64,000 nucleotides of DNA. It comes from an uncultured SAR86 cluster bacterium (GTDB taxonomy: Bacteria > Pseudomonadota > Gammaproteobacteria > Magnimaribacterales > D2472). The stretch lies in assembly GCA_902599315.1 (NCBI GenBank), contig CACKEY010000006.1, positions 1 to 64,000 on the forward strand, in the 5' to 3' direction. Both the position numbers and the translations under genes were made by a program. Below, piece after piece: positions 29,444 through 45,579 of the stretch. The stretch's first letter is position 1. Each line of letters starts with the position of its first letter. The notes below the pieces were generated by a model. That model was not told where the DNA came from. It searched no databases and saw only the letters and a program-made list of their open reading frames with translations.

Positions 29444-30472
29444 ATGAAAAGATTACTGGATATTACGAATAATTTATTTGGGTTAGTCATTGCTCTAAAT
29501 ATTTTTCATCAAATCGTCTCAAGCACAGGGTATCTTTCTATAAGCATTCCGATCATAAAAGTACTTTACTGGGTGTCAATGATCATTTTTGTAATAGAAT
29601 TACTACTTCGAATTGGTAGTGAAAAAAAACTCTCTTTTTTAATTTCGATCGATACCCTTGTTCTAATTAATCAACTTTTTTTTTCTGTGTATGATTTAAG
29701 AATTTTAAGATTATTCAGACTATTCGATATTTTCAGCCAATCCAGGTTTTTATTACCCACAAATACTCTCATAAAGACAATTGTTAAACAAAAAAATGCT
29801 TTGCTGGGATCACAGATTATGGTGATCTCAATATTATTAATTGTTTCAACATTTATCTATTTTCTTGAATCAGCTGTCCAGCCGGAAGTTTTTGGCAGCA
29901 TACCCTCAACAATGTGGTGGGGTATAGCAACTCTTACAACTGTTGGCTATGGAGATGTAGTCCCAATGACAGATTTAGGTAAGTTATTGGCAAGCTTTAC
30001 GATGCTAGTAGGCATTGGTATGTTTGCACTGCCGGCAGCAATTCTAGCCTCTGCATACTATGAGGAAATTCAAAAGAAAAACTTTTTGGTCAGCTTTGAG
30101 GCTATTGCTTCTGTACCATTATTTCAGGAGCTCCCAATTGGAGCTGTAGGAAAAATTAATGAAAAACTACAAGTAATTCTTTTGGCAGAGCATGAAACAA
30201 TATTTTCAAAAGGTGACGAGGCTGACTCTATGTTTATTATTGAATATGGCAAAGTCAAAGTTGAAATAGACAATCCAGTTTACTTAGTAGCAGGAGATTT
30301 TTTTGGAGAGATGGGTTTGCTAGGTAATGCACCTCGAAATGCGACCATTACAGCAGCAGACGATACAAAATTACTTGAGTTAACAAAAGCAGATTTAGAG
30401 GAACTATCAGAAGAACATCCAGGGCTGTTCAAAGAATTAGAGTTAAGCGCTTCTTCAAGAACTTCTAGTTAA
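29444..30472 (+). CDS. Cyclic-nucleotide-gated potassium channel (MloK1/SthK-like)
   Basis: A 342-residue tetrameric-type channel of the inner membrane. Six transmembrane segments with an S4-like arginine ladder (YDLRILRLFRLF), then a K+ filter TTVGYGD (residues 165-171) in IATLTTVGYGDVVP. A cytoplasmic cyclic-nucleotide-binding domain fills residues 215-335, with the phosphate-binding cassette GDFFGEMGLL...PRNATITA: Glu289 and Arg298, the residues that contact the ribose and phosphate of cAMP, are both present. Length and layout match bacterial CNG channels. An adenylate cyclase lies 2 kb downstream on the other strand, so cAMP from it is a reasonable ligand (inference). Confidence 0.9.
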   Translation: MKRLLDITNNLFGLVIALNIFHQIVSSTGYLSISIPIIKVLYWVSMIIFVIELLLRIGSEKKLSFLISIDTLVLINQLFFSVYDLRILRLFRLFDIFSQSRFLLPTNTLIKTIVKQKNALLGSQIMVISILLIVSTFIYFLESAVQPEVFGSIPSTMWWGIATLTTVGYGDVVPMTDLGKLLASFTMLVGIGMFALPAAILASAYYEEIQKKNFLVSFEAIASVPLFQELPIGAVGKINEKLQVILLAEHETIFSKGDEADSMFIIEYGKVKVEIDNPVYLVAGDFFGEMGLLGNAPRNATITAADDTKLLELTKADLEELSEEHPGLFKELELSASSRTSS

Positions 30473-31635
30473 TCATCGCCCTTATCAGGGGCAGCAGAAT
30501 GAGAAATATCTTTTGATTTTAAACCATCTGAAGAATATTCAGATATATCTAATGGATCTGTGTTTTCGACGTAAACCGAAGTAGAAGGGTAAGCAAATTC
30601 AGAACCATTGCTACGCACTATTTTAATTATTTCAAAAATTAGATTTTGTTTTATTTTAGAAAAATCAGTTAGTCCAACAGGGTCTGTATAACATAAAACA
30701 CGCAGATCAATGGAGCTTGAAGCTAGCTCTTCAGTTCTGGCAAATGACTCTTGGCCAGGATTGATTGCAAATTCTTCAGAAGTATTGATGAAGGTTGAAA
30801 TCTCCTCACAAATTGTTGCTAGCTGCTCTTGGGTGGTTGAATAGATCAAGTTTATCGTCCAGCTGATTCTTCGATACTCCATGTTGCCATGATTGATAAC
30901 CTTTACATCGGAAAGATCTTTATTAGGAACAAGCATTGGAGCCGTATCAAACATTCTGACTAAAGTTGATCGAAAGCCTATATCTTCAACTATGCCATGC
31001 AACGAGCCAGGAACTTCAATTCGATCACCTGGCTGAAATCTATTTTCACCAATAATTAAAAGACCTGAGATTAAATTTTTAAATAAATCTTGCGCACCAA
31101 GCGCTACAGCCACTGAAAACAACCCAAGCCCTGCGACTAGGGGACCAATCTGTATGCCAAAAATATCTAAGATAATCCCAAGACCAATGATCCAAATAAT
31201 GATTCGCGCAGCTCTTTCAAGCCACATGGTCATGGATCTAGTTAAAACCGAACTAGAGGTAAAAATTTGAAAAACTGGAGCAATACTATTAGCCAAGGCA
31301 CTAAAAATTGTAAAGGCTATCATGGCTTTAACAAGATTAGTTGCAAAGGTATCAGCAACGCCCGATAAAGGTAGATAAACCGTTATGAAATAAAGAGCAA
31401 CCGTTATAGGTATATAGCCCAAGGGTTTTTTTAAAGATTCTAAAAGTACATCGTCAATCTCTGAGTCAGTATTGGCGGTGAGAGTTTCCAACCATTTTAA
31501 TACCCTGCCAACGAAAAATGCTCTCCCAATTGCGCCAGCTATAAATATCAACAAAGAAACAATAATTTCTGTGATACCAATGCCTAGGAAACCTTCATCC
31601 CAAACATTCATAATAATCTCTGTTAATCCTTCCAT
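30469..31635 (-). CDS. MscS-family mechanosensitive channel
   Basis: A 388-residue inner-membrane channel that opens under membrane tension or acts in osmotic relief. Three or more transmembrane segments are followed by the pore helix and beta domain signature GLGLFSVAVALGAQDLFKNLISGLLIIGENRFQPGDRIEVPG. The C-terminal cytoplasmic domain has the family repeat NEST (SWTINLIYSTTQEQL). The stop overlaps the convergent CNG channel by four bases at a TTAA. The start overlaps the upstream barrel gene by 13 bases, so MscS, barrel protein and cyclase form one operon. Confidence 0.9.
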   Translation of the reverse strand: MEGLTEIIMNVWDEGFLGIGITEIIVSLLIFIAGAIGRAFFVGRVLKWLETLTANTDSEIDDVLLESLKKPLGYIPITVALYFITVYLPLSGVADTFATNLVKAMIAFTIFSALANSIAPVFQIFTSSSVLTRSMTMWLERAARIIIWIIGLGIILDIFGIQIGPLVAGLGLFSVAVALGAQDLFKNLISGLLIIGENRFQPGDRIEVPGSLHGIVEDIGFRSTLVRMFDTAPMLVPNKDLSDVKVINHGNMEYRRISWTINLIYSTTQEQLATICEEISTFINTSEEFAINPGQESFARTEELASSSIDLRVLCYTDPVGLTDFSKIKQNLIFEIIKIVRSNGSEFAYPSTSVYVENTDPLDISEYSSDGLKSKDISHSAAPDKGDD

Positions 31636-32396
31636 ACTTCACTCAAATTATATGAAAACATCGTTGAAATAGACTCATCTGATTTCTCTGCCAGCATCGG
31701 TGGATCCGAGTCGTGAAATGATGAATATTGCAACATTATTTTAAAATCTTTATTTACCTTAAAATCTATGGCTAGAATCATACTTGTTTTGTAGTCATTC
31801 TCAAAATCATCAAGACTTGGTTGAAAATAGATTGTTGGATTAAAAGAAATATTTTCAGCTAATTCAAAAATATTGTGAAGATAAAAACCAAGGCGATCTG
31901 TCTGCATAGATTTTCCCGCAAGATCTGTCTCATCTTCGCCCAATAAACCGGCGCCAAATCGAGCAGTTTTTGACAGCTCATACCTTAATCCACCACCAAA
32001 CACCGATCTTTTTTTATAATTTCGAAAGGGGTTTTCACTGTACTGAGCAAAGATTTCCCAATTAACTTGCTCCTTCCCAACTAAAATGTATCTGCCGTGC
32101 ATGAAGGTTGATTCATCCATGGTAATTTCATTAGATTTTCTCTCACTTTGCTGCAGAATAAGAAAAGACTCTGCATTTTCAGAGTTATTATCAAACCTGA
32201 GTTGAAGTGAGTAATAGTCTCTGTCTCTGTTTCCTCTAGATGCATCAAGACTAGCTGAAATACTAGTAAAAAATCCTATTTCTCCTTCTCGTCTTAAATC
32301 TTCAATGTTTACAATAGCTTGTGTTAGAACGTTTGAAGACAAGGCACTAAAAACAGCAACAAAGATAAATTGAAGCTTATTTATTTTGTGCAACAT
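31623..32396 (-). CDS. Predicted outer-membrane beta-barrel protein
   Basis: A 257-residue exported protein with no clear family. The start at 32396 is chosen because it opens a signal peptide (MLHKINKLQFIFVAVFSALSSNVLTQA); the frame also runs to 32441. The mature part has alternating polar and hydrophobic stretches with aromatic ends (IGFFTSISASLDAS, DYYSLQLRFDN, SVFGGGLRYELSKTARFGAG, SFNPTIYFQPSLDD, FKIMLQYSSFHDSD), like a small barrel of DUF481 type. It overlaps the cyclase stop by 20 bases and MscS by 13 bases. Its presence in a cyclase-MscS operon suggests envelope sensing, which is inference. Confidence 0.55.
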   Translation of the reverse strand: MLHKINKLQFIFVAVFSALSSNVLTQAIVNIEDLRREGEIGFFTSISASLDASRGNRDRDYYSLQLRFDNNSENAESFLILQQSERKSNEITMDESTFMHGRYILVGKEQVNWEIFAQYSENPFRNYKKRSVFGGGLRYELSKTARFGAGLLGEDETDLAGKSMQTDRLGFYLHNIFELAENISFNPTIYFQPSLDDFENDYKTSMILAIDFKVNKDFKIMLQYSSFHDSDPPMLAEKSDESISTMFSYNLSEVWKD

Positions 32397-34560
32397 AGAC
32401 TCCCTCCCATCCAGCAGGCGGCGGATTAGTTGTAAATTCATCTATCCTTAATTTCATATGCTCGTAGTATAGTTCAAGCTCTTTAGATGATGAGATTAAT
32501 TCATTGATTAAAATCTTGGCTTGCTCCCAGTCTTGAGAACGATATTTATCCAAGAAATTCATATGTTTTGTCAGGCAATCATTGGTTAATTTTGCATTTG
32601 ATTCAAAACACGTAAAAATTGTTTCTGCAGTTGTCTTACCTTTAACTGCAATTTTATCTATTTCAATGATTTGAAAAGCAGAATTATTTAAAAAAGTATT
32701 TTCTCCGATGATCATGCTCAGTCCGTAGTTAGATGACTGACTTTCAAGTCTAGAAGCTAGATTTACAGCGTCGCCTAATACCGTATAGTCAAAGCGCTTG
32801 TCTGATCCCATGTTCCCAACAATGCATTCTCCAGAATTAATGCCAATGCCTATTTCCAACTTGAAATTTAGACTATCTTTCATCTCTTCGTTTAATTGAG
32901 ACAAAGCTTTATTCATAGCATGAGCTGCCTTAATGGCTAATTCGCGGTGGTCAAGTTGATCAGTAGGTGCATTCCAAAAGGCCATAATGCAATCACCCAT
33001 GTATTTATCTATGGTGCCACCATGATCCAAAATTGCATTTGATAAGACGGTAAGTAAACGGTTAATGAGTTGCGTAAGAGCTTCAGGATCATCTTTGTAT
33101 TGCTCTGAAATTTTGGTGAAACCTCTTATGTCAGAAAATAAAAAAGTCATCTCTTTTCTTTCCCCCCCAAGAACCAATGCATCGCTTGATTCAGCTAAGC
33201 GATTGACCATTTCTGGAGATAAGTATTGCGCAAAGGCGCCTCTGACTCGACTGCGCTCAAATTCAGTGAACAAGAAATTAAAGAAAGTAACGGCTACATA
33301 TACAATTAATGAAATGATTAAGGGTGAAATTGGGTCTACCAAAAACAGTTTAGATTTAAAGAAATAGTAGCTTGAACCAATAATCCCACCAGAGCCCACA
33401 ACAAATACACTTAATCCTCCAATCGGGCCTAAAGCTTGGATGGCAAGAGTGATAAGTAAAGCCAAAACTAATCCAGTAATAAACTCTGCTCCAAATAACC
33501 AATCTGGTCTTTGTAAAAATTCATTAGCAAAGATTTGTTGAATAAATTGAGCAATGACAGTTACTCCAGGAATATTTTTTTCAATTGGAGTTGAGCGCAG
33601 GTCTAATAATCCAGAGGCTGAGGTTCCAACCAATGCAACTTTACCCTCAAAAAATTCTGGCTCAATAACTCCTGATAAGACATCAGCAGCTGAAACAGTC
33701 TGAATATTTTTTGATGGAGCAAAATAAATCCAAGCATTTCCGCTTGCAGAGGTTGGAATAGTTAGGGGGCCTAATTTGACATGATTGATGCCGGTTTGCG
33801 ATCCAAACGCTTCTTCGCTTGAGGCATTTGAAGATTTTATTTGATAAGTCGATGCCCCAATAGCAACTCTTGTGATTTCCAATGCAAGGCTTGGAATCAA
33901 TTGATCGCCAACTCTTTCAAAAGTAGGCAGTTGACGAACTATTGCATCATTGTTACCTATGCTCATTGACCCGATACCTTGGGCAGCATCTTCTAATGAC
34001 TCGATATTATCTTGAATGCCTAGATAGTTTGCAAGAAATTGTTTTGGATCATCGCCTTGAGTCACCAATCCATACTTATTGCTGACACTTAATGATTGAT
34101 TTTGATTACTCAAGGCTTGACCCAGCACAACTGTGCCGTGATTTGCAATGGCGTCTGCAAATAATTGATCATTGTTGGGAAGGGCATTTAATTCTTTGCT
34201 TAGAATTTCGTTTTCAGGATAAAGTGAAATTAAATTCTGTGGATTAGATCTATCAGGTTCAGCAAAGACTATATCAAAGCCCAAAGCTGCAGCTAAATAT
34301 GCTTGATTGGTTAATTCAGCTAAGGTATTCCGTGACCAAGGCCATTGACCAATTTGGGCAAGAGAATTGTCATCTATATCAATTATTACAACAGGATCTT
34401 CAGCATAAATATTTCTTGGCAAGATTCCTTGAAAAGTATCAAAAGAAAAATTTTGTAAGTTCGTAAAAATTTGTAAAGGATTTATTAAGGGTAAAAAGCT
34501 TATTAATACAGCAAAACCAAGGAGACCAAGTCTGGAATATTTTTTAAAGTTTTTTTTCAT
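32377..34560 (-). CDS. CHASE2-domain membrane adenylate cyclase
   Basis: A 727-residue sensor cyclase that makes cAMP from ATP. Layout: an N-terminal anchor (about residues 11-30), a periplasmic CHASE2 domain (about 40-340, with PVVIIDIDDNSLAQIGQWPW and GKVALVGTSASGLLDLRSTP), three transmembrane segments (about 355-435), then a class III cyclase domain (about 460-650). Metal-binding Asp477 lies in FLFSDIRGF and Asp523 (KYMGD) is also kept. Lys519 and Asp591 (DYTVLGDAVNLASR) are the adenine-selecting pair, and Asn600 and Arg604 complete the site, so it should be an adenylate rather than guanylate cyclase. A helical tail of about 80 residues follows. FecR-type proteins often sit near CHASE2 cyclases, as here. 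Confidence 0.9.
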   Translation of the reverse strand: MKKNFKKYSRLGLLGFAVLISFLPLINPLQIFTNLQNFSFDTFQGILPRNIYAEDPVVIIDIDDNSLAQIGQWPWSRNTLAELTNQAYLAAALGFDIVFAEPDRSNPQNLISLYPENEILSKELNALPNNDQLFADAIANHGTVVLGQALSNQNQSLSVSNKYGLVTQGDDPKQFLANYLGIQDNIESLEDAAQGIGSMSIGNNDAIVRQLPTFERVGDQLIPSLALEITRVAIGASTYQIKSSNASSEEAFGSQTGINHVKLGPLTIPTSASGNAWIYFAPSKNIQTVSAADVLSGVIEPEFFEGKVALVGTSASGLLDLRSTPIEKNIPGVTVIAQFIQQIFANEFLQRPDWLFGAEFITGLVLALLITLAIQALGPIGGLSVFVVGSGGIIGSSYYFFKSKLFLVDPISPLIISLIVYVAVTFFNFLFTEFERSRVRGAFAQYLSPEMVNRLAESSDALVLGGERKEMTFLFSDIRGFTKISEQYKDDPEALTQLINRLLTVLSNAILDHGGTIDKYMGDCIMAFWNAPTDQLDHRELAIKAAHAMNKALSQLNEEMKDSLNFKLEIGIGINSGECIVGNMGSDKRFDYTVLGDAVNLASRLESQSSNYGLSMIIGENTFLNNSAFQIIEIDKIAVKGKTTAETIFTCFESNAKLTNDCLTKHMNFLDKYRSQDWEQAKILINELISSSKELELYYEHMKLRIDEFTTNPPPAGWEGVYVAQNK

Positions 34561-34569
34561 ACTAAATCT

Positions 34570-35175
34570 TTATTCATTCACGTAATCAGCTACTTTTTGA
34601 AGGTATTTTTGCTGAGTTTTCTTTGTTAGATCTAAAAGGTTTACTGCAGTCATTAAATCATTAAAGACTTCAATTGATTTTCGCCCCCTGAGTAATTCTC
34701 GGAGAGCATTTTGATAGGTCCAATGAATATATAGTGACGCCATTTTAAAGTGGATGAGATTATTGTCATTTAAATTTGGCTCCTCTTTGAGTTCAATCGC
34801 ATTTTGCAGCCAATTTGAGCTAATAGGACGAGTCAATTTCCATGCCTCATTAATGCTCGAAGGATGTTGAATTAGCCAGTTTGCAGTATATTCGTCTTTG
34901 AATAAATCTATAGCAACGTACCAACCATAATAAATTTTAAAAAGATTAGATTTTTCTTTTTTTAATTCTCTTTCTAACTCAGCAGCTTCATCTAAAAGCA
35001 CTTGTATGATTGCTGCCTCATGAATCTCATCAAGGTTGTTAAAGTATCTGTAGAAGCTGCCATAAGCACAACCTGCTTCTTTTCCTATGCTAGTAACAGA
35101 TATTTTTTCTCCGTTATTCTTCAGAGCTATAAGCGCATTAATCATACTGTTTCTTGTGAGCTCTGACTTTTTCAT
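34570..35175 (-). CDS. TetR-family transcriptional regulator
   Basis: A 201-residue repressor-like protein. The start at 35175 is chosen because it places the helix-turn-helix near the N-terminus (MKKSELTRNSMINALIALK); the frame is open up to 35220. The DNA-binding helices are ISVTSIGKEAGCAYGSFYRYFNNLDEIHEAAI, the diagnostic TetR block with YGSFYRYF. The C-terminal part is helical with no recognised effector. It lies nine bases upstream of the CHASE2 cyclase and is divergent from the exporter gene. A palindrome in the intervening gap suggests it controls the exporter and giant protein and perhaps itself. Confidence 0.85.
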   Translation of the reverse strand: MKKSELTRNSMINALIALKNNGEKISVTSIGKEAGCAYGSFYRYFNNLDEIHEAAIIQVLLDEAAELERELKKEKSNLFKIYYGWYVAIDLFKDEYTANWLIQHPSSINEAWKLTRPISSNWLQNAIELKEEPNLNDNNLIHFKMASLYIHWTYQNALRELLRGRKSIEVFNDLMTAVNLLDLTKKTQQKYLQKVADYVNE

Positions 35176-35209
35176 ACAGCAATTATAACCCCATAGATAA
35201 ATGCGTCTC

Positions 35210-35254
35210 TGACATATCAATAAAAATGATATTTTGTCATTTATTACCTATAAT
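35210..35254. promoter_or_regulatory. Inverted repeat next to a -10 box between TetR and exporter genes
   Basis: TGACATATCA (35210-35219) is mirrored by TGATA (35227-35231) and TGTCA (35235-35239), an imperfect palindrome in the 119-base gap. It lies just upstream of a perfect TATAAT at 35249-35254, which faces the exporter gene starting at 35295. A TetR dimer bound here would cover the -35 region, so this is a candidate operator. Confidence 0.5.
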
Positions 35255-35294: not shown

Positions 35295-36626
35295 ATGCAA
35301 TATAAGTTTTGCCCCTTTATCTTGGCCTGTTTAATTTTTACCGGTCTTAACATATCGGCACAAAATGTAGCTCCAACAATCTCTGATCCTCAAGCGCTCG
35401 AGGCCATTGAGAAGAAGAAAGAAGAGGTTTTTCAACAACTATTTAAGGATCCAACCAATCTTTCACTGCTATTTGAATATGCCAACTTATCAATAATAGT
35501 TGGAGATTTAGAAGGGGCTATTGGAGTTTTTGAGCAAATGCTAATTTATGATTCAGCTCTTCCCAGGATAAGATTAGAGCTCGGCGTTTTATATTTTCGC
35601 TTAGGCGCCTTTGCCTTAGCGAATAACTATCTTAAAAGTGTGAAGGAATATGATCCGCCGCCAGCAGTGCTTGATAAAGTCGATCAATTCTTAGCTGCCA
35701 TAGAGGATGCAGAGAATCCAATTCAATGGCAACAAAATATCAGCATTGGCTTTAAAAGAACCACCAATGGTAACTCAGGTATCAACGCTGATTTTATTGA
35801 GATTGGAGATTTTCTCTTAGATGTAGATTCAAGTTCAAAAAGGCAAAGTGATCGATCACGGCTCATGAATTATTCATTAAATATCACCCATGATCTTAAA
35901 CACCCTAGAGGTGACAATGCTCAATACTTTTTTGCATATGGGGCAGATCGTTTGGATACATTCTCTCAATTTGATATTCAAACAAACATCTTTTCTGCTA
36001 GAAGGAACTTTAATCTAGATGAAAATTATTTTTCTTTTTTTAATTTAGAAGATGCTGTTTTTGCTCCTAACATTAATTTTCTTAGGGTTGTGTTAAATAG
36101 GGTAGAGATTTTGCAAAGTATCAGAACCTCATTAGACTATAGCGGCCAGTTAGACAATGGATCTTCGATGCTTTTTAGTTATTATAAAGATGCAAAAGCC
36201 TTTGATACCAGTTCACAAAAAAATGGTCATTTAACCGGCATCAGCTTTGGTCAAAGCTTTGTTGGCATGGGCTCACAAGCATTGATTGGATATAAATTAT
36301 CCATAGAAAACTATAGAGCAAATGCTAAATATGAATATTATGAAAATTATGGGGTTGAATTTAGTTATGCTAAGCCCTTAGGAAACAATTGGCAGTTTTC
36401 TTCCAAATACTCTTTGCAAGATAAGACTCATGATGATGATTATCCTTTATTTGGCGATCGACATGATCAGCTGGAAGCGTTGAGATTTAATTTGCTTAAG
36501 CCCTATGGCAGCTGTTGGGCATTCAATTTTGGCATGGTTTTTTCAGATAGCAAAAGTACCATCAACATATATAAAAGACGATCTAATAATTTTACTGCAC
36601 AAGTTAACTATCAGTGTTTCAAATAA
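35295..36626 (+). CDS. TPR plus beta-barrel outer-membrane protein, Slam/type XI-like exporter
   Basis: A 443-residue outer-membrane protein. Signal peptide (MQYKFCPFILACLIFTGLNISAQ), then a periplasmic tetratricopeptide region (about residues 35-135, with LLFEYANLSIIVGDLEGAIGVFEQML and RIRLELGVLYFRLGAFALANNYL), then a barrel of about 300 residues (from GFKRTTNGNSG to the end, with TPR-to-barrel linker at NPIQWQQN). This is the Slam (surface lipoprotein assembly modulator) / DUF560 layout of type XI secretion, which moves cargo with TbpB-like barrels across the outer membrane. The next gene, two bases on, encodes a secreted protein ending in such a barrel-like domain, which supports the assignment. 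I see no diagnostic single residue, so the call rests on architecture and context. Confidence 0.7.
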   Translation: MQYKFCPFILACLIFTGLNISAQNVAPTISDPQALEAIEKKKEEVFQQLFKDPTNLSLLFEYANLSIIVGDLEGAIGVFEQMLIYDSALPRIRLELGVLYFRLGAFALANNYLKSVKEYDPPPAVLDKVDQFLAAIEDAENPIQWQQNISIGFKRTTNGNSGINADFIEIGDFLLDVDSSSKRQSDRSRLMNYSLNITHDLKHPRGDNAQYFFAYGADRLDTFSQFDIQTNIFSARRNFNLDENYFSFFNLEDAVFAPNINFLRVVLNRVEILQSIRTSLDYSGQLDNGSSMLFSYYKDAKAFDTSSQKNGHLTGISFGQSFVGMGSQALIGYKLSIENYRANAKYEYYENYGVEFSYAKPLGNNWQFSSKYSLQDKTHDDDYPLFGDRHDQLEALRFNLLKPYGSCWAFNFGMVFSDSKSTINIYKRRSNNFTAQVNYQCFK

Positions 36627-36628
36627 TA

Positions 36629-39600
36629 ATGAAGATTATAAATAAAGTTTCGTTATTTTTTATGCTTTTGAGTGTTAACTCTGCTTTCTCTCAAGAACAA
36701 ATAGGCGTGGCTTCTGCAGTTAATAAAAACACCACCGATCTCACACTTGAACAAGAACGCAAGCTCATTGATGCTGGATATGAAATCATTCAAAACCATA
36801 CCATCGAAACTGATGAAATTGGACGCGCTCAAATGTTGTTATTGGACGGCACAGCATTTTCTATTGGCCCAAATTCAAGCGTTATCTTAGATAGATTTAT
36901 TTATAACCCGGAGACTGCTGAAGGTTCACTTGAGGTTACAGCCAGAGGTCTACTGAGGATAGTTGGCGGCAAAGTTACAAAAAAACAACCTGCACTTATT
37001 CGAACGAATTCTGCCACGGTTGGCATTAGAGGTGGCATAGGTATTGTAAAAACTGAGGGTCCACAAACTACAGCAACTTTTCTTTATGGTGACGAAATGA
37101 CGGTCACACCTAACTGCGTTGATTTAGATTCTTTTGGCGATCAATGTTCAGCTGATTATCAAACCACTGTCACCGAACCAGGTTTTTCAGTCACTGTGGA
37201 GGATGAAGACTCTGAACCCAGCGAGCCGGTGGAAGTCACTGAAGAAAGCCTGGATGAAATGCAAGAGGACTTGGAAGCTTCTGATGAAGAGCCAGAGGAT
37301 TCTTCTTCAGCCGAAGCTGATGAATCCGAAAATGATCAAACTGAAGAGGATTCTTCATCATCTGAGGCTGAAGAATCTCAAAATGAAGATACAAATGAAG
37401 AAGAACCAGCGCCAATTTCTAGTGATGAAAGTGAGGATAATACTGAGCCTATAGATGACAATACTCCTGCAGAGGAAACAGCGGATACCACTGATGATGC
37501 AGGTGAATCAAGCGATGTAGATGTGGATGAGAGCATGCTAGATTCTTCTGGAGTTTCTGAAGCTTCGTCAGATGTGGAACCAGAAGATCTTGGCACAGCA
37601 GATGCATATGAGGCTGAGGTAGAGGCAGAAACTGTTGAAGCAGATGACATGAATGAAGACCCTACTGAGGATGTCGGTGAGGCAGCAACAGAAAGCACTC
37701 AAGAGGCAACAGCAGAAGTTGCACCTATATTTCAAGTTGATATTGCCGATCCAAAAGAATCAATTGATGAGAACATAATTGATGAGGTATTAGCGCCTTT
37801 AACCTTTATTAATCCAGGTGATCTATCATTCACGGTTTCAATTTCTGGTGATGATGCAGATTTTGTGCAATTTGATGATGAGAGTTTTTCTATCGTGCTT
37901 ATAGAGGCATTAGATTATGAGACTCAAACCAATCTTAATTTTGTTGTCACCATTGAATCAGAAAATGGAGATATTTCAGAAATTTCATTTGATATTAATG
38001 TTATTGATGAGGATGAGCCCGTTGACTTATCATCCTCACTAACCGCTGATTCATTTGCAGAAAATCTTGATGTAGGCTCGATCATTGCCGAAACTTCCGC
38101 TATTGATCCAGAAGGGAGTGAAATTACCTATTCACTCTCAGGAGAGGGCAGTGATGATTTTGAAGTCGATGCAAATGGAAATATTTCTATTAAAAATCCT
38201 TTGGACTATGAGAGTATTACCGAATACTCATTAACTCTCTCAGTTAGTGATGGCAATAATATTTCAACTCAGGAGATATCAATTGTTATCGCAGATATCA
38301 ATGAAGCTCCTGTTGTTTCAAGTGCTATTAATGCAGATTCATTTGCTGAGGATATTGCATCAGGCTTTGCAATAGCATCCATAGATGCAACTGATCCAGA
38401 ATCATCTGACATTACTTTTTCCCTTTCTGGCGATGGCAGCGACTTATTTAGCATTGATGCAGAGGGTAACATTACCTTAGCTGGTAATTTAGATTACGAA
38501 ACTAATACAAGTTTTAACATTACTATTTCAGCCAGTGATGGTAAAAATATCACCACCTCTGAGATACTCATTTCAGTTAGTGACGTCAATGAAGCACCTG
38601 CATTATCAGCTGCAACTTCTGCAGCTTCATTTGCTGAGGATATTACCACTGGTTCTCAAATAGCCACCTTCAGTGCAATCGATCCTGAAGCTGAAAATTT
38701 AACTTATTCATTGTCTGGAACAGGTAGCGAACTTTTTTCAATTGATGCTGCAGGAAATATCACCCTCAATTCAAATTTTGATTTTGAAACAGCATCAAGT
38801 TACAGCTTAACCTTGACAGTGACTGATGGTGTTCATCAAGTGTCTGAGGTCATCTCTATAACAATTACAGATGTTAATGAGGCTCCTATTTCCTCTATTG
38901 CAATGACTTCAAGCTCTTTTTCAGAGGATGTTGCAGTTGGGACAACCATTGCTAATGCATCCGCAACTGATCCTGAGGGTGGCAGCATTACTTACACTTT
39001 AACGGGCGAGGGAAGCGATAAATTTACAGTTGATAGCAATGGCCAAATTTCACTCAGTGGTGCTTTAGATTATGAGACAGTCTCATCATTTTCATTTACC
39101 TTGACCGTTAGCGATGGAGTTAATTCAACCTCTGAAGTAATTAGTTTCTCAGTGCTTGATGTTGTTGAGCTCTCCATTGCACTTGCAAGTAGCACCATCT
39201 CGATAAGCGAAGGCGCTGCTTCAGGATCTGCCGTGACAACCACCGAAACAACCACTGATGGCAGTGGCACAGTGACTTACTCCTTATCTGGAACCGGCAG
39301 CGATAAGTTTAGTGTTTCCAGCGATGGCACCATCACCACCAACGGTTCTTTTGATTATGAGACGACTTCATCATACTCCATCACTTTAACGGCAACAGAT
39401 GGCACTAACACGGTAACCGAAACATTTTCGGTCAACATTACTGATTTAGATTTATCCATACAATTAGCCAATAGCTCAATTTCAATAAGCGAAGGCGCAA
39501 GCTATGGCTCCTCAGTGACTACCACTACTGTTACTGAATCAGAGGGCACCGTTTCATATTCTTTATCTGGAACCGGCAGTGATAAGTTCAGTGTTTCCAG

Positions 39601-42600
39601 CGATGGTACCATCACCACCAATGGTTCTTTTGATTATGAAACGACTTCATCATATTCCATCACTTTAACGGCAACAGATGGCACCAGCACAGTGACTGAG
39701 ACATTTACGGTGAGTATAACAAATGAGGTAATCAATGGTCTGTCAGTAAGCCTTGCCAACAGCGGTGCGGCGATAGGGGAAAGTTCAAGTTCTGGTAGCA
39801 GCGTGGCCTCATCAAGTATCAATAATCCAGATAGCGATTCTGTGACTTACTCTTTAAGCGGAACTGGCAGCAGTAATTTTAGTGTCGATAGTAGTGGTAA
39901 TGTTACCACCAATGCAACTTTAGACTTTGAAACTGCAAAAAGTTATTCCGTGACCCTTACCGCAACCACTGGAGATACAACTGTCACCGATACTTTTACC
40001 GTCAATGTGGGCAATGTAGAAGAGCTTGAATCAGCGGTGTTGCGCTATTCTGCAGCTTATAATTCAGTTTCTAGAAGCGGTTTTAGTGCCACGGCTACCC
40101 GTGGTCCATCTGGATCAAGCCTTGCTGCCTACACTTTAGAGCAAGTCGGTACCACCAATTCAACTGACATTACTAGTGTGGATGATACGTCTAACAATTA
40201 TGTGCCAGTAGAGATCAATTCTGGAACCAGATTGAATTGGCGCTACTATTTCCCCATTGATACCGTTGCCAATGGACAATTTACTTTTGCGCCAAATTCT
40301 TCTGCAATCGATGGAATGTATTTCAGCAATCTAGGCACGAATGTAACTACCACCATAGCCAATGCTGATTTCCTGACTGCAGGACGGCTAGAAAGCGCTG
40401 AGTATTGGTTCATGACCACCGATAAATCAGCTGCCGATGTAAGTTATACATCCGCAACCGGATTTCGCACTTATGGGGTTGTTGTAGGCGATAACAGCTA
40501 CTACGGAAGCCAATACTCCAGTAACGGCACACATCCTAGTTATAATACTTCTTGGGCAACTGCTATCACCGGTGCAGGTTACACATATCTAAATTGCTTT
40601 GGATTGAATGTTTCAACTTGTTTAAGTGATGCCGGCATCAGTCTAGATGATGTTGGCTTTATTGCCAGTAACACACTTGGAACAATTAATTTTGGATACA
40701 CCAATAGCCAAATAGCTGATTGGATAGATGGTGGTGGAAATATGTTCATGGTGGTCGGTGAGCATCCAGGCTGGGGTGGCCCAAGGCTTGAGAACAATAC
40801 ACAAGTTCAAGCAATATTTAGTGAGCTTGGATGGAGTGGTTTTGCACTTGATACCACTAGATCCAACTTTAACGCTACTACAACTATCAGCTCGACAATG
40901 ACTAATGCTATTACAAATGCAGGTGGTACCCTAGATTATTCGGGTATCGTGGGTCAAGTTTACTCACCAGCTGCCTCAGGATATTTTTCAATACCATCGG
41001 TTTGTAATGCGCTCATTGACCTAATTCTTATGGTATGCGATCCAGGGCGAACAGGCGCATCAGGGACTTTTGGCGGAGTTGCCGATACTAACCCATTTGC
41101 AACCTCAGTTAATTTTGGAGATAACTATGACATCATGCAATGGTTTGCTGGCCTAGGTAATGGAACTGCAACCACATCCACCTATAGTCTCTATGAAGAT
41201 CAAGTAACACTAGCCGGTGAGGTTTATAAGGATGCTAACTTTGTATCCTTTACCAATGGAAATAAAAGAGTCATCGCCATGGTAGTCATTCCGCTTGAAA
41301 ACTTTGCTGCCAGTGGAACCAGCGATGATTATTTTATTCCTAATTTCATTCCAAAAACGCTATGGTCTTATGGTGATGTTGGACACGATTATTGCTTGGG
41401 TGTAGGCAATAATGCCTCGGCATGTAATACCTATGATAATTACTATGATTTTTCTAGCATCGCCCTTGATAGCTCTAACATGCTTGATACCTCAAGATTT
41501 AATGGCAGCACAAATGAGTTGCCTGAGGGTCAATCCATGTGGTGGCAGGTTCTCAATCCAAGTGGCGTCGGGGTTGGTCTGTGGGCACAAATTTCCTTTA
41601 AAGATTCTTATGATGGTGCCTCAGGTAGCACAACTCGAGACGATCAACAGAGTCTTTTGAATGTGGTGATATCTAACGTGGATTATCGCAAAAATGATAC
41701 CACTCGATACTCAGCAGGAGATACTGGCTTGGGCATGGATGGTTATCATTATTGGTCCTATCAGGGTGCAACCAATGCAGATAATGATGGTCTGGGCATT
41801 AACTATGGTACTTCCCCAATTGAGTGCGCAACCTCCAATGATAGCGGCTGCTTTTGGGGTGATAACTCTAATCAACCTGGCGGCGCCATGATCACATCTT
41901 CTGATCCTTACAAGTCAGGTAATATGACGTTGGGAGTTAATTATAACTCCAACAATGACACCTTCAGCACCGGCTCCTTCAATATTTCAGCTGTGGTGCA
42001 AGATGTTAAACCTTCAAGCTCATCTTATGCAGATTATGCAAGCTTAAGTGATTTTAGGTCCTCTGATTTTTATACCTCGAGTGCTACAGGTTACAGTGGA
42101 TTTTTCAGCGGCATTTTAGAATTTGATGTCAGTGGCACAGGTAACTCTCAGCTGTCTTCAATTCGTTCCAGCAGTACCTTGGCTAGCTTTACGTTTGATA
42201 CGACGAACGATGATGTGCAAGTGGTGGTTCCGATGACCATTAGCGCAGCACCTTCGAATAATTACACCTCAAATTGGACGACCGTGGATACTGGCTCTAT
42301 GACTCTAAAGTTTGGTGATGCCACCAATGATGCAGCAAAATCAGCTTACATTTCAAGTGAAGTCTTTGCAGCAGAAATTCAAGACGATGGGGCGCAAATT
42401 GATGGCACTTCGGGGGGTTCAAATAATCTAGCTGGAGTCATGGTTTCTTACAACACTTTGGATAAAGAAGATTCTGATTTGTTTCACTCAGGCGGTAATG
42501 ATTCCATGCCCGATACCGAATATTCCACTTGGGGTTTTTGGGCCATGAGCGCGGCTGATATTTCTCCCAATGCTGGCACGCAAAATGCTTCAGTCCACTT

Positions 42601-43087
42601 GGGTACATGGGTCGGCGGTGAAGTGGTCGATCAAAGTGAGATACCAACCTCAGGCTCAGCTTCTATGAGTGGGGCTGCGGTGGTGAATGTGGCTTATCGT
42701 TACAATCAAACCGGCACCAACTATGACGTGCATAAATACACCACCAGCGCCGATGTAGCAGCAACCTTTAATTGGGGCTCCAGCGGCTATTCTGGAACCT
42801 TAGCCTTTACCAATTTTGATGATAAAAATCCTATTGTCTCAAACGCTGGCTTTTCATCCTTTAATGTTGCCATCACTGGAACAACGAACACTTACACAGG
42901 CAGTTCAACTGACAGTCTCAGTAATTCTTGGCTGGGTGGGGCATCGGTTGCCGGTGCTTTGTATGGTGGCTCATCACCGGATGAGAGTGGTGGTAGAGTG
43001 AATGTCAATTTATATAAATCAGGCGATACAGGCACAGCAGGCGCTAATGATTTTTACATGGCTGAGGGAATTTATCTTGTTGACTAG
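36629..43087 (+). CDS. Giant secreted protein: FecR domain, acidic linker, cadherin-like repeats, TbpB-like barrel
   Basis: A 2152-residue exported protein. Start at 36629 gives a clean signal peptide (MKIINKVSLFFMLLSVNSAFS) without a lipobox; a GTG at 36614 is in frame. Order: FecR domain (about residues 25-165, VTARGLLRIVGGKVTKKQPA and TNSATVGIRGG); Ser/Glu/Asp-rich linker (about 180-360); eight cadherin-like repeats (about 365-1130), the first linked by calcium-type D-x-N-E-A-P segments, the last three lacking them; a large unassigned region with a GATase-like stretch (SQIADWIDGGGNMFMVVGEH, near residue 1365); and a C-terminal region (about 2005-2152) with SSPDESGG resembling the TbpB barrel recognised by Slam exporters. 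Translationally coupled to the exporter upstream. By eye, it is richer in G+C than its neighbours. Likely a surface or released adhesin or sensor. Confidence 0.8.
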   Translation: MKIINKVSLFFMLLSVNSAFSQEQIGVASAVNKNTTDLTLEQERKLIDAGYEIIQNHTIETDEIGRAQMLLLDGTAFSIGPNSSVILDRFIYNPETAEGSLEVTARGLLRIVGGKVTKKQPALIRTNSATVGIRGGIGIVKTEGPQTTATFLYGDEMTVTPNCVDLDSFGDQCSADYQTTVTEPGFSVTVEDEDSEPSEPVEVTEESLDEMQEDLEASDEEPEDSSSAEADESENDQTEEDSSSSEAEESQNEDTNEEEPAPISSDESEDNTEPIDDNTPAEETADTTDDAGESSDVDVDESMLDSSGVSEASSDVEPEDLGTADAYEAEVEAETVEADDMNEDPTEDVGEAATESTQEATAEVAPIFQVDIADPKESIDENIIDEVLAPLTFINPGDLSFTVSISGDDADFVQFDDESFSIVLIEALDYETQTNLNFVVTIESENGDISEISFDINVIDEDEPVDLSSSLTADSFAENLDVGSIIAETSAIDPEGSEITYSLSGEGSDDFEVDANGNISIKNPLDYESITEYSLTLSVSDGNNISTQEISIVIADINEAPVVSSAINADSFAEDIASGFAIASIDATDPESSDITFSLSGDGSDLFSIDAEGNITLAGNLDYETNTSFNITISASDGKNITTSEILISVSDVNEAPALSAATSAASFAEDITTGSQIATFSAIDPEAENLTYSLSGTGSELFSIDAAGNITLNSNFDFETASSYSLTLTVTDGVHQVSEVISITITDVNEAPISSIAMTSSSFSEDVAVGTTIANASATDPEGGSITYTLTGEGSDKFTVDSNGQISLSGALDYETVSSFSFTLTVSDGVNSTSEVISFSVLDVVELSIALASSTISISEGAASGSAVTTTETTTDGSGTVTYSLSGTGSDKFSVSSDGTITTNGSFDYETTSSYSITLTATDGTNTVTETFSVNITDLDLSIQLANSSISISEGASYGSSVTTTTVTESEGTVSYSLSGTGSDKFSVSSDGTITTNGSFDYETTSSYSITLTATDGTSTVTETFTVSITNEVINGLSVSLANSGAAIGESSSSGSSVASSSINNPDSDSVTYSLSGTGSSNFSVDSSGNVTTNATLDFETAKSYSVTLTATTGDTTVTDTFTVNVGNVEELESAVLRYSAAYNSVSRSGFSATATRGPSGSSLAAYTLEQVGTTNSTDITSVDDTSNNYVPVEINSGTRLNWRYYFPIDTVANGQFTFAPNSSAIDGMYFSNLGTNVTTTIANADFLTAGRLESAEYWFMTTDKSAADVSYTSATGFRTYGVVVGDNSYYGSQYSSNGTHPSYNTSWATAITGAGYTYLNCFGLNVSTCLSDAGISLDDVGFIASNTLGTINFGYTNSQIADWIDGGGNMFMVVGEHPGWGGPRLENNTQVQAIFSELGWSGFALDTTRSNFNATTTISSTMTNAITNAGGTLDYSGIVGQVYSPAASGYFSIPSVCNALIDLILMVCDPGRTGASGTFGGVADTNPFATSVNFGDNYDIMQWFAGLGNGTATTSTYSLYEDQVTLAGEVYKDANFVSFTNGNKRVIAMVVIPLENFAASGTSDDYFIPNFIPKTLWSYGDVGHDYCLGVGNNASACNTYDNYYDFSSIALDSSNMLDTSRFNGSTNELPEGQSMWWQVLNPSGVGVGLWAQISFKDSYDGASGSTTRDDQQSLLNVVISNVDYRKNDTTRYSAGDTGLGMDGYHYWSYQGATNADNDGLGINYGTSPIECATSNDSGCFWGDNSNQPGGAMITSSDPYKSGNMTLGVNYNSNNDTFSTGSFNISAVVQDVKPSSSSYADYASLSDFRSSDFYTSSATGYSGFFSGILEFDVSGTGNSQLSSIRSSSTLASFTFDTTNDDVQVVVPMTISAAPSNNYTSNWTTVDTGSMTLKFGDATNDAAKSAYISSEVFAAEIQDDGAQIDGTSGGSNNLAGVMVSYNTLDKEDSDLFHSGGNDSMPDTEYSTWGFWAMSAADISPNAGTQNASVHLGTWVGGEVVDQSEIPTSGSASMSGAAVVNVAYRYNQTGTNYDVHKYTTSADVAATFNWGSSGYSGTLAFTNFDDKNPIVSNAGFSSFNVAITGTTNTYTGSSTDSLSNSWLGGASVAGALYGGSSPDESGGRVNVNLYKSGDTGTAGANDFYMAEGIYLVD
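39281..39427 (+). repeat. Direct repeat copy 1 within cadherin-like repeats
   Basis: A 147-base unit, repeated 279 bases (93 codons) further on with few differences, most of them silent. It encodes the SLSGTGSDKFSVSSDGT to TVTETF part of repeats 6 and 7. The near-identity points to recent duplication or gene conversion inside the gene. Confidence 0.85.
39560..39706 (+). repeat. Direct repeat copy 2 within cadherin-like repeats
   Basis: The second copy of the 147-base unit found at 39281. The protein differs mainly at one Asn-to-Ser change (GTNTVTETF versus GTSTVTETF). Such pairs can mediate in-frame loss or gain of one repeat. Confidence 0.85.
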
Positions 43088-43134: not shown

Positions 43135-43869
43135 ATGAATAGTTTTGTAGAGTTCTTTCTTACTATAAGAAACAGCAAAGTCTTCAGTACCATCGTCATT
43201 GCTGTTATTGTTGCCTCTGCCGTGTATGCGGGTGTCAGCTCTTATAACATAGCTCCTGAATACACCATTTATCTAGATCTTTTTGACTATGCGATCACCT
43301 TATTTTTTCTCATAGAGATTATCATTCGGATAATTTCAGAGCGCTCATTGAAGAAATTCTTTAGCGATGGGTGGAATGTGTTTGATTTTTTAATTGTGAC
43401 CATATCCCTGGTACCAATTAACAATGTTGAAAGTGTCTTTGTAGCAAGGCTCCTCAGAATTATTCGAGTCCTACGAATCATAACAGTGGTACCAGCGTTT
43501 CGTCATATCATTGATTCTTTAATTAAAACCATTCCAAGGGTCGGCTTTATTGCGCTGCTCATGTTTATCTTTATGTATGTTTGGGGCGCAATTGGCACCA
43601 TGTTTTTTGGGAGAGTCGATCCAGAAAACTGGGGTAACATAGGCTTGGCCTTGATTACCCTTGTTCAAGTTGCAACTTATGATGATTGGGCTGCAATCAT
43701 GGGGCAAGTCACAGAAGTTTATCCATTTGCGTGGATTTTCTTTGTGTCTTTTATCATTATCAATGCTGTCATACTTTTAAATATGGTCATAGGCGTAATC
43801 GTTGATGTTATGACAGGTGGCAGTGGAATCGATGATTTAATTAAAGCAGAAGAAAATTCTACGGATTAG
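43135..43869 (+). CDS. Single-domain voltage-gated cation channel (BacNav-like, calcium-type filter)
   Basis: A 244-residue channel of the NaChBac family, working as a homotetramer. Six transmembrane segments; S4 carries four arginines at three-residue spacing (RLLRIIRVLR, residues 105-114). The pore is LITLVQVATYDDWAAIM: the filter reads TYDDWAA (181-187) where sodium channels have TLESWAS or TLESWSM. The two adjacent aspartates resemble the engineered calcium-selective filters TLDDWSD and LDDWAD. The S6 helix (VSFIIINAVILLNMVIGVIVDVM) carries the usual Asn. The cytoplasmic tail is short. It follows the giant protein gene by 47 bases and overlaps a convergent dehydratase gene by 11. Ion selectivity is inference. 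Confidence 0.9.
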   Translation: MNSFVEFFLTIRNSKVFSTIVIAVIVASAVYAGVSSYNIAPEYTIYLDLFDYAITLFFLIEIIIRIISERSLKKFFSDGWNVFDFLIVTISLVPINNVESVFVARLLRIIRVLRIITVVPAFRHIIDSLIKTIPRVGFIALLMFIFMYVWGAIGTMFFGRVDPENWGNIGLALITLVQVATYDDWAAIMGQVTEVYPFAWIFFVSFIIINAVILLNMVIGVIVDVMTGGSGIDDLIKAEENSTD

Positions 43870-44850: not shown

Positions 44851-45579
44851 TTATTTGTTATTTAATTTATCTTTAATTTGAAATGGTAAATAGGCAATAT
44901 AAAACAGAATGACAGCCAATGGAATCACTGCAATTAAGTGTAGCGGAGGATCTGGGAAGTAATCCATTAAAGTGCCATCAACTGGTCTATCAACAAGATA
45001 CCAATAATTTGCAGGAGAGCCTATTAAAAGGTTGGCTATGTAAACCAGAATCAACAAGGCTAAGGTTACCCCGATAACTTTGAGAATATCTACTAGGTAG
45101 GGCCTTTCCTTGAATACCATCACAACATACAAAACAGCCAAAAGAATAAAGCTGTGACCCCAAAAAAAAGGAGAATATTCGCCATGAGGAAATCCATATT
45201 CGAGATCTGGGGTTGCTAAGGCCATTGTTGCGCCACAAATTCCCCAAAAATATGCGCAGTTAAAAAGAATTTTTGGTGCATTATCTTTAAGTAAATAAAT
45301 AATCATAGCAATCATTGAAAAGTCACACATGTGCAGAGGAAACTCACCCTGCCATGGCAAATCAAACAGCATAACGTCATAGATTGGCTGAGTAAGCATG
45401 TGGATGATGATAATGACGGCAACAACTTTTCCACCCAAGATTTGTCTAGATTCAGTTTGAATTTGGAAGTATTTAATATAGCTATAGATTAAAGCAGCAC
45501 ATATCGATAGAGTAATCAGATGCTGAGTCCCAAATACTTCAAATGCTGGATAATTCATTTTATTAAATAAATTTTCCAA
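44851..45579 (-). CDS. YwaF/TIGR02206-like membrane protein
   Basis: A 242-residue integral membrane protein of unknown function. Seven hydrophobic segments are visible. The opening FEVFGTQHLITLS and the central motif WQGEFPLHMCDFSMIAMIIYLL, with conserved His and Asp, then CGATMALATPDLEYGFPHGEY, match the TIGR02206 family. It is two bases upstream of the PLP enzyme in transcript order. No function can be assigned, though the conserved charged residues inside membrane segments suggest a transport or metal-binding role. Confidence 0.75.
   Translation of the reverse strand: MENLFNKMNYPAFEVFGTQHLITLSICAALIYSYIKYFQIQTESRQILGGKVVAVIIIIHMLTQPIYDVMLFDLPWQGEFPLHMCDFSMIAMIIYLLKDNAPKILFNCAYFWGICGATMALATPDLEYGFPHGEYSPFFWGHSFILLAVLYVVMVFKERPYLVDILKVIGVTLALLILVYIANLLIGSPANYWYLVDRPVDGTLMDYFPDPPLHLIAVIPLAVILFYIAYLPFQIKDKLNNK

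What the first reader, a model, noticed from the sequence alone, without database searches (positions are those of the whole stretch)
35295..43087. Putative type XI (Slam-like) exporter paired with a FecR-cadherin giant cargo
The TPR plus barrel protein has the Slam/DUF560 layout and its neighbour, two bases on, is a 2152-residue secreted protein whose C-terminal 150 residues end in a TbpB-like pattern (SSPDESGG). Known Slam cargo are small lipoproteins or hemophilin-like proteins. A giant cargo with a FecR domain, a long acidic linker and cadherin repeats would be new. The cargo has a plain signal peptide without lipobox, so it would be secreted or surface-bound without lipid.
Basis: partly seen in the sequence, partly recalled or inferred. 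Interest (0 to 1): 0.85.

Follow-up and report, generated by a model that had tools for sequence, protein, structure and literature searches.

The report
Slam-like exporter with giant FecR-cadherin fibre
A marine SAR86 bacterium carries a distant relative of the Slam protein-export pore next to a giant, fibre-like protein with a swappable head, and both sit beside a cyclic-nucleotide signalling enzyme, which suggests a surface fibre that may also report to the inside of the cell.

Summary
The 443-aa protein (35295-36626) is a divergent Slam/DUF560 (type XI, T11SS) protein: its barrel aligns end to end with 19 canonical Slams (profile probability 98.3%, E 1.3e-14; 60 shuffles at most 0.6%). The 2152-aa neighbour (36629-43087) has a signal peptide without lipobox, FecR, an acidic linker, about eight cadherin repeats, a head and a C-terminal barrel matching TbpB barrels (95.5%, E 1.6e-8; shuffles at most 0.4%). 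Single-sequence Pfam misses both matches. The genes are adjacent in two SAR86 families; in a third the cargo lies elsewhere but co-occurs. Best reading: a T11SS-type, C-terminally addressed, non-lipidated surface fibre, perhaps plugged by FecR and read by the cyclase. Export is untested; no structure could be predicted; most FecR partners elsewhere show no recognised barrel.

The parts
35295..36626 (+). Exporter: divergent Slam/DUF560 (T11SS) outer-membrane protein, N-terminal TPRs and C-terminal barrel, 443 aa
35430..35705 (+). TPR region of the exporter (about residues 46-137)
   Evidence: Pfam TPR hits at residues 70-129; conserved block in A1; TPR_Slam in 20 of 44 members at E up to 1
35727..36623 (+). 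Barrel region of the exporter (about residues 145-443), ending in a Slam-like strand pattern
   Evidence: profile match to 19 canonical Slams, 98.3%, E 1.3e-14; end pattern aligned
36629..43087 (+). Cargo: 2152-aa secreted fibre protein, two bases after the exporter
36629..36694 (+). Plain signal peptide without lipobox (residues 1 to about 22)
   Evidence: read from the sequence; no Cys before residue 163
36800..37090 (+). FecR domain (residues 58-154)
   Evidence: PF04773, E 3.9e-6
37199..37753 (+). Acidic linker (residues 191-375): 41% D/E, no K/R
37754..39988 (+). Rod of about eight cadherin-like repeats (residues 376-1120)
   Evidence: PF00028, E 4.5e-74; motif spacing
39989..41998 (+). 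Head region (residues 1121-1790)
   Evidence: alignment A5 for residues 1140-1640
40496..41158 (+). Hypervariable cassette inside the head (about residues 1290-1510)
42071..42583 (+). Conserved region before the barrel (about residues 1815-1985), in the place of the T11SS cargo 'pedestal'
   Evidence: alignment A4; no TbpB match of its own (1.1%)
42596..43084 (+). C-terminal TbpB-like barrel (about residues 1990-2152), presumed export address
   Evidence: profile match 95.5%, E 1.6e-8; 60 shuffles at most 0.4%
32377..34560 (-). CHASE2 adenylate/guanylate cyclase, divergent from the exporter (a gene with a sub-cut-off TetR_N match, 34570-35220, lies between)
   Evidence: PF05226 E 5.9e-50 and PF00211 E 2e-23; linkage and co-occurrence
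43135..43869 (+). Ion channel just after the cargo; possible member of the unit
   Evidence: PF00520 E 1.1e-40; homologue in 18 of 57 loci, 36 bp after the exporter in five of them where no cargo follows
29444..30472 (+). Cyclic-nucleotide-binding ion channel; possible read-out of the cyclase
   Evidence: PF00520 and PF00027; homologue in 42 of 57 exporter loci

Best explanation
A T11SS (Slam-type) exporter carries a giant, non-lipidated surface fibre. Shown by homology: a TPR plus Slam-type barrel in the exporter; a TbpB-type barrel at the C-terminus of the fibre; adjacency or co-occurrence of the two. Inferred: the fibre crosses the inner membrane by its signal peptide; its C-terminal barrel is recognised by the exporter and leaves first; the head and the cadherin rod follow through the pore; the N-terminal FecR domain stays in the periplasm, joined by the acidic linker running through or beside the pore, and so anchors a protein that has no lipid. 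The hypervariable cassette in the head is the part that meets the changing outside world (prey, particle, phage or neighbour) and is replaced by recombination. The periplasmic FecR domain then lies where the CHASE2 sensor of the neighbouring cyclase could read it, so that the fibre may report contact as a cyclic-nucleotide signal. My own odds: exporter-cargo relation about 0.7; FecR anchoring about 0.4; signalling to the cyclase about 0.35.
For: Exporter: profile 98.3% to 19 canonical Slams over 287 columns, 60 shuffles at most 0.6%; 98.4% to 15 PF04575 relatives, 40 shuffles at most 0.6%; DUF481 control 0.4%. Cargo barrel: 95.5% to 29 TbpB_B_D stretches, 60 shuffles at most 0.4%; three other regions of the cargo at most 1.1%. 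Pairing: adjacent in f1 and f2; of 45 exporter loci with a same-strand ORF starting within 150 bp, 27 have a FecR-bearing one there; 28 of 29 exporter genomes carry cargo (26 by C-terminus; G006 and G016 by the FecR end at a contig edge); in f3 the two are unlinked and still co-occur in 8 of 9 against 0 of 4. Wider family: of 15 genomes found across the phylum, 12 have a FecR gene near the exporter and 3 a TbpB-barrel gene near it, one protein having both. Cyclase: strong hits in exactly the 29 exporter genomes; divergent neighbour in 47 of 53 loci with enough upstream sequence, including an alphaproteobacterium, L183. Head: two tandem cargo in G021 share a run of 3,065 identical bases and are 16-24% identical over residues 1301-1500; 39 distinct cassettes form 26 clusters; one is 92% identical between an f1 and an f2 cargo whose exporters are 42% identical.
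Against: No experiment and no structure. Single-sequence Pfam does not find SlipAM in the exporter or TbpB_B_D in the cargo C-terminus; 7 of 44 exporters also match DUF2860 weakly; PDB profile searches with A3 and A4 found no relative. In other genomes the FecR partners are mostly smaller, and of 14 FecR ORFs in 12 phylum-wide loci only 2 matched a barrel profile; the C-termini of four small alphaproteobacterial FecR partners gave 0.3% against the SAR86 barrel and 58.8% against TbpB barrels. So FecR, not the barrel, is the constant partner, which fits signalling better than export. In f3 the exporter stands apart from the cargo, and in g15 cargo the last stretch differs. G082 has exporter and cyclase but no cargo found; G004, G012 and G015 have cargo but no exporter found (63-78% complete). 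Exporter and cyclase are linked, so their shared distribution is not many independent events. No TonB receptor among the 10 neighbours scanned, unlike T11SS cluster 1.
Confidence: 0.62

Rival explanations
1. The TPR-barrel protein is not an exporter but a receptor or anchor in a FecR/CHASE2 signalling unit like NsrA-CyaK of Sinorhizobium. The fibre is its extracellular antenna and is exported by another route.
For: FecR is the most constant partner: 12 of 15 phylum-wide loci, with a recognised barrel in only 2 of the 14 FecR ORFs. The cyclase has the exporter's distribution and stays with the exporter even where the cargo does not. CHASE2 cyclase, FecR outer-membrane protein and TPR protein cluster in Campylobacterota and are proposed to be one pathway (PMC9239204, passages); NsrA, an outer-membrane barrel, is needed for CyaK signalling (PMC7529298, passages).
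Against: The barrel is homologous to canonical Slams over its whole length; the SAR86 cargo ends in a TbpB-type barrel, and 3 of 15 phylum-wide loci have a TbpB-barrel gene beside the exporter. No RTX, LPxTG or PEP-CTERM motif in the cargo, and no other secretion family among the 10 neighbours scanned.
Confidence: 0.22
2. A shed T11SS product: the whole protein, FecR included, is released, and FecR only holds the unfolded cargo in the periplasm; the cyclase merely regulates expression.
For: Soluble T11SS cargo are known (hemophilin, HrpC; PMC8406197, passages). The cargo has no lipid anchor.
Against: A 41% acidic, K/R-free linker and a long cadherin rod have no evident purpose in a free protein (inference); FecR proteins without a recognised barrel stand beside the exporter in other genomes.
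Confidence: 0.1
3. A predatory, toxin-like or phage-defence surface weapon whose variable cassette is the active part.
For: Strong diversification of one cassette inside a fixed frame, with exchange between families.
Against: Pfam and NCBIfam show no enzymatic or toxin domain in the cargo over a curated cut-off, and none of the 10 neighbours scanned matches a toxin or immunity family at E up to 0.01; the defence library PADLOC was not searched. The cassette is internal, not terminal.
Confidence: 0.05

Closest known systems
Slam / DUF560 / T11SS outer-membrane proteins with TbpB-barrel cargo (PMC8406197, passages; PMC12282271, abstract, passages and two sections)
   Same: TPR plus barrel exporter beside a cargo with a C-terminal TbpB-type barrel and a variable N-terminal part; a non-lipidated cargo as in TXISS-1B
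   Different: Too diverged for Pfam in the window protein; cargo is 2152 aa with FecR, linker, cadherin rod and an internal hypervariable cassette; CHASE2 cyclase and no TonB gene among 10 neighbours. The words FecR, cadherin and SAR86 do not occur in the main text of PMC12282271, nor FecR and cadherin in that of PMC8406197; supplements were not read
CHASE2 cyclase + FecR protein + TPR protein clusters of Campylobacterota (PMC9239204, passages)
   Same: The same three kinds of gene together (with a phosphodiesterase), proposed there to be one signal pathway
   Different: The passages do not call the TPR protein Slam-like; here FecR is the N-terminus of a giant fibre
NsrA-CyaK and SMc02177 (FecR) of Sinorhizobium meliloti (PMC7529298, PMC5498481, PMC13001267, passages; the NsrA paper itself is not held)
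   Same: Outer-membrane barrel and FecR protein tied to CHASE2 cyclases
   Different: NsrA was not compared by sequence here; no fibre or TbpB-like barrel is mentioned in what I saw
BiofilmReg operon, FecR-LysM + CHASE2 kinase (PMC5192318, passages)
   Same: FecR with a CHASE2 sensor in one operon
   Different: Histidine kinase instead of cyclase; no exporter or fibre named in the passages
RTX adhesins of the LapA kind (recalled, no call)
   Same: N-terminal retention part, repeat rod, ligand part near the C-terminus, C-terminal export signal first
   Different: Type I export and calcium repeats; the cargo here has no GGxGxD motif

Membership tests
T11SS outer-membrane protein (Slam/DUF560) | N-terminal TPR region | tested here: met
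   Pfam TPR hits, best TPR_19 3.7e-5; TPR_9 and TPR_19 in 44 of 44 members, TPR_Slam PF24575 in 20 of 44, best 0.0011
T11SS outer-membrane protein (Slam/DUF560) | C-terminal DUF560/SlipAM barrel, homology | tested here: met
   Profile-profile 98.3% to 19 canonical Slams and 98.4% to PF04575 relatives, with shuffle and DUF481 controls
T11SS outer-membrane protein (Slam/DUF560) | Single-sequence match to PF04575 | tested here: not met
   No hit in the window protein at E up to 1; own-genome search 0 of 1 (its control rang nowhere); 6 of 44 family members match, best 3.7e-5. A detection criterion, not a property of the family
T11SS outer-membrane protein (Slam/DUF560) | Barrel fold in the outer membrane | not testable with these tools
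   Structure prediction busy in 18 tries, then switched off
T11SS outer-membrane protein (Slam/DUF560) | Exports its cargo | not testable with these tools
   Needs an experiment
T11SS cargo | Sec signal peptide, lipidated or not | tested here: met
   Read by eye from the sequence; no signal-peptide program was at hand
T11SS cargo | C-terminal TbpB-type barrel, homology | tested here: met
   95.5%, E 1.6e-8 against 29 stretches; PF01298 by hmmscan hit none in the window protein and 1 of 15 members at E 1.4
T11SS cargo | Barrel fold and pedestal domain before it | tested here: inconclusive
   A conserved ~170-residue region lies there; its fold could not be predicted
T11SS cargo | Gene beside or co-occurring with the exporter | tested here: met
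T11SS cluster 1 locus | TonB or TonB-dependent receptor nearby | tested here: not met
   None among 10 neighbouring proteins scanned
FecR/CHASE2-cyclase signalling unit (NsrA-CyaK kind) | CHASE2 cyclase, FecR domain and outer-membrane barrel encoded together | tested here: met
   the barrel by homology only
FecR/CHASE2-cyclase signalling unit (NsrA-CyaK kind) | Outside signal raises cAMP through the barrel protein | not testable with these tools
   Needs an experiment
FecR/CHASE2-cyclase signalling unit (NsrA-CyaK kind) | Sequence homology to NsrA | not tested
   NsrA was not fetched; tblastn of a relative's exporter (L244) in the plasmid collection found nothing

The most novel reading that the evidence does not exclude
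An outside-in sensor made by merging two known machines: a Slam-type pore exports a ~2,000-residue fibre C-terminus first, the N-terminal FecR domain stays behind as plug and as ligand for the CHASE2 domain of the neighbouring cyclase, and a recombining head cassette decides what the fibre feels. T11SS would then be a signalling platform and not only an export route, and the FecR/CHASE2/TPR clusters seen across Proteobacteria and Campylobacterota would be its plainer forms.
Probability: 0.3. Interest if true: 0.87.

Novelty: new variant of a known kind. Interest (0 to 1): 0.73.

Why it matters
SAR86 is among the commonest surface-ocean bacteria and is usually seen as a streamlined free drifter (both recalled), yet some members keep a giant fibre with a head that is swapped like a phage-receptor or adhesin tip. 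If the exporter carries it, T11SS handles a cargo architecture far from the ones it is known for, and does so without a lipid anchor. The steady company of FecR and a CHASE2 cyclase would join two literatures, type XI secretion and FecR/CHASE2 signalling: no paper in the open-licence library held 'FecR' with 'surface lipoprotein assembly modifier', and none of the four listed mentions T11SS. It also offers a test of what CHASE2 domains sense.

Tried and rejected
Structure prediction of exporter (A3) and cargo C-terminus (A4): no job was accepted, so fold search was not used either. PDB sequence searches: the exporter alone gives mainly TPR proteins, A3 nothing at 0.01, A4 three hits at E above 1 to an anti-CRISPR protein, taken as chance. 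NCBIfam on both proteins: only matches far below their cut-offs. PF04575 in the own genome: none.

Considered and rejected: recent transfer of the whole cargo as the cause of its conserved C-terminus. Window against L157 (f2): over residues 2001-2150 four-fold identity is 0.17-0.33, as in the rod, while amino acids are 84-92% identical, so selection holds that end; raised four-fold identity lies in and around the head and up to about residue 1900, which fits recombination there. Also rejected: my early reading that L157 shares the window's cassette (a partial BLAST segment); one search shows it does not. RTX, LPxTG and PEP-CTERM motifs: none.

Rows dropped: weak hits G048 (exporter, TPR part only) and G007 (cyclase); 4 of 19 PF04575 matches not used in A2; 5 of 34 TbpB_B_D loci not used; 7 of 26 PF04575 matches not used; 3 of 17 cargo C-termini not used in A4. 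In one search L240's FecR gene is about 2 kb from the exporter and its cyclase hit is weak (E 9e-9); both are counted. L245's contig ends just after the exporter. Many loci are the same genomes as under public names, and a few genomes give two loci; searches count the set only, and removes identical cassettes. The 39 cassettes include divergent f3 ones whose alignment is loose.
Full report
What is there. The window is contig 6 of a 1.44-Mb genome of 89.8% completeness; most relatives with public names are SAR86 cluster bacteria. ORF 35295-36626 encodes 443 aa and ORF 36629-43087 encodes 2152 aa, two bases on. In several relatives the mechanically called start of the second ORF overlaps the end of the first, which may mean translational coupling (inference).

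The exporter. Pfam gives only TPRs and the PDB mainly TPR proteins. I aligned 24 SAR86 homologues (A1), and 44 including alphaproteobacterial ones (A3), and compared profiles. Against 15 of 19 PF04575 matches from the class (A2) the full length gives 99.7%, E 2.1e-26; the barrel alone 98.4%, E 4e-15, with 40 column shuffles at most 0.6%. Against 19 canonical Slams (PF04575 E-values 3e-41 to 5e-106), all from genomes that also hold TbpB_B_D matches, the barrel gives 98.3% over 287 columns (A3) or 96.4% (SAR86 only), 60 shuffles at most 0.6%. A DUF481 barrel from the same loci gives 0.4%. Of 44 members scanned singly, 6 match SlipAM (best 3.7e-5), 20 TPR_Slam (best 0.0011) and 7 another family, DUF2860 (best 4.5e-4). 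I take it as a divergent member of the DUF560 superfamily.

The cargo. From the N-terminus: signal peptide without lipobox; FecR (58-154); a linker of 41% D/E without K/R (191-375); about eight cadherin-like repeats; a head (1121-1790); a conserved region; a C-terminal barrel. The barrel, as a profile of 33 sequences, matches 29 TbpB_B_D stretches at 95.5%, E 1.6e-8; 60 shuffles reach 0.4%, the reversed profile 0.1%. Cadherin repeats, FecR and the region before the barrel give 0.4, 0.2 and 1.1% against the same profile.

Pairing in SAR86. Of 99 relatives besides the own genome, 29 have the exporter, 29 the cargo C-terminus and 29 the cyclase (two weak hits set aside); exporter and cargo share 26, exporter and cyclase all 29 (Fisher p 2e-17 and 1e-25; related genomes and linked genes are not independent). 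G006 and G016 hold the FecR end of the cargo at a contig edge, so 28 of 29 exporter genomes carry cargo; G082 does not. G004, G012 and G015 (63-78% complete) have cargo without exporter. In f1 and f2 the genes are adjacent. In f3 the exporter stands elsewhere, followed by purU or an ion channel, yet 8 of 9 exporter genomes have cargo (three or more of them a divergent form) and 0 of 4 without exporter do (no FecR end in those four either); two cargo genes may lie in tandem there. This unlinked co-occurrence is the best evidence that the two work together, though genus membership alone could produce it.

Beyond SAR86. A scan of named genomes gave 57 loci, among them five alphaproteobacterial ones (labelled Ferrovibrio, Rhizobium, Reyranella twice, and one without genus) whose exporter homologue is followed by a FecR protein. 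In 398 genomes across the phylum the A3 profile found 15 besides the own. In my neighbourhood scan 12 of the 15 have a FecR gene, 3 a TbpB-barrel gene (one protein has both) and 9 a cyclase resembling the window's, one of these weakly. Of the 14 FecR ORFs only 2 matched a barrel profile, and several are 263-284 aa. The C-termini of four small alphaproteobacterial FecR partners gave 58.8% against TbpB barrels and 0.3% against the SAR86 barrel. So FecR is the constant companion and the barrel is recognised in a minority.

The cyclase. The gene at 32377-34560 is a CHASE2 cyclase. It lies divergent within 1.1 kb of the exporter in 47 of 53 loci with 1.5 kb or more upstream; the six without are three alphaproteobacterial loci and three SAR86 ones. 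The 47 include loci of the f3 type, where the cargo is away, and Ferrovibrio. A cyclic-nucleotide-binding channel lies in 42 of the 57 loci. FecR with CHASE2 has been reported: a FecR-LysM/CHASE2-kinase operon (PMC5192318, passages); CHASE2 cyclase, FecR outer-membrane protein, TPR protein and phosphodiesterase in Campylobacterota (PMC9239204, passages); NsrA, an outer-membrane barrel, with CyaK in Sinorhizobium (PMC7529298, PMC13001267, passages), and a FecR protein of the same regulon (PMC5498481, passages). I found no paper linking these to T11SS; the searches that could have shown one were made, on open-licence papers, supplements not read.

The variable head. Against its nearest relative (L031, exporter 95% identical) the cargo is 82-100% identical in 18 of 22 bins of 100 residues, 67-73% in two and 20-42% in the two over residues 1301-1500. 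In G021 two tandem copies share a run of 3,065 identical bases and are 16-24% identical in that stretch; a misassembly of this one contig is not excluded. Conversely the window shares its cassette with another genome of its genus (G024, L131) at 82-94% amino acid and 0.94-1.00 four-fold identity per bin over 1301-1500, against 0.33-0.68 over the last 200 residues. An f1 and an f2 cargo (L034, L049) share a cassette at 92%, with four-fold identity 0.80-0.91 there and 0.16-0.46 in the linker and rod bins from 201 to 1000, although their exporters are 42% identical. 39 distinct cassettes fall into 26 clusters at 70% identity and coverage. I read this as exchange of a head module by recombination, within and between families.

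How it most likely works. Shown: homology of both proteins, pairing, cyclase company, head exchange. Inferred: C-terminal barrel as export address, C-terminus-first passage, FecR as periplasmic anchor, the head as contact surface, the CHASE2 cyclase as reader. The order of parts resembles RTX adhesins of the LapA kind (recalled), reached by another export route.

What it is called. Exporter: a member of the DUF560/T11SS superfamily by homology, function untested. Cargo: an architecture not described in the two T11SS surveys whose main text I searched. Large cargo as such are not new: surface proteins of Psychrobacter and Sphingomonas with several barrels are described (PMC12282271, section read), and a 1,770-aa ORF with several barrels appears. 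Hence 'new variant of a known kind'. What would raise it is proof that the fibre signals.

Noticed in passing
window 29444-30472, 30469-31635, 43135-43869: Three ion-channel genes (cyclic-nucleotide-binding channel, MscS-type, Ion_trans/polycystin-like) surround the cyclase-exporter-cargo unit; homologues lie in 42, 30 and 18 of 57 exporter loci. The last follows the exporter by 36 bp in five loci without adjacent cargo.
   Followed up: partly
L051:11192-12043 (-) and similar f3-type loci: In f3 genus g15 the exporter is directly followed by purU (formyltetrahydrofolate deformylase; identified in L051); T11SS genes are reported to co-occur with one-carbon metabolism (PMC12282271 abstract).
   Followed up: partly
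L051:8685-11192 (+): A Met-zincin (DUF4953/DUF5117) metalloprotease lies next to purU and the exporter.
   Followed up: no
L038:5309-11752 and L130:476-6970: Two tandem cargo genes of one genome (G021) with a 3,065-base identical run and different heads.
   Followed up: yes
L242:1-7285: A locus of the same class with a 1152-aa protein that carries both FecR and a TbpB barrel, a second FecR gene and two exporter-like genes.
   Followed up: no
window 44851-45579: A TMEM164-related integral membrane acyltransferase-like gene.
   Followed up: no
L174:1-852 (-) with L174:4398-5777 (+): MAGs labelled Woeseiaceae carry the cyclase-exporter pair and, in L174, a FecR-linker protein start at a contig end; the label may be wrong or the system shared.
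   Followed up: no
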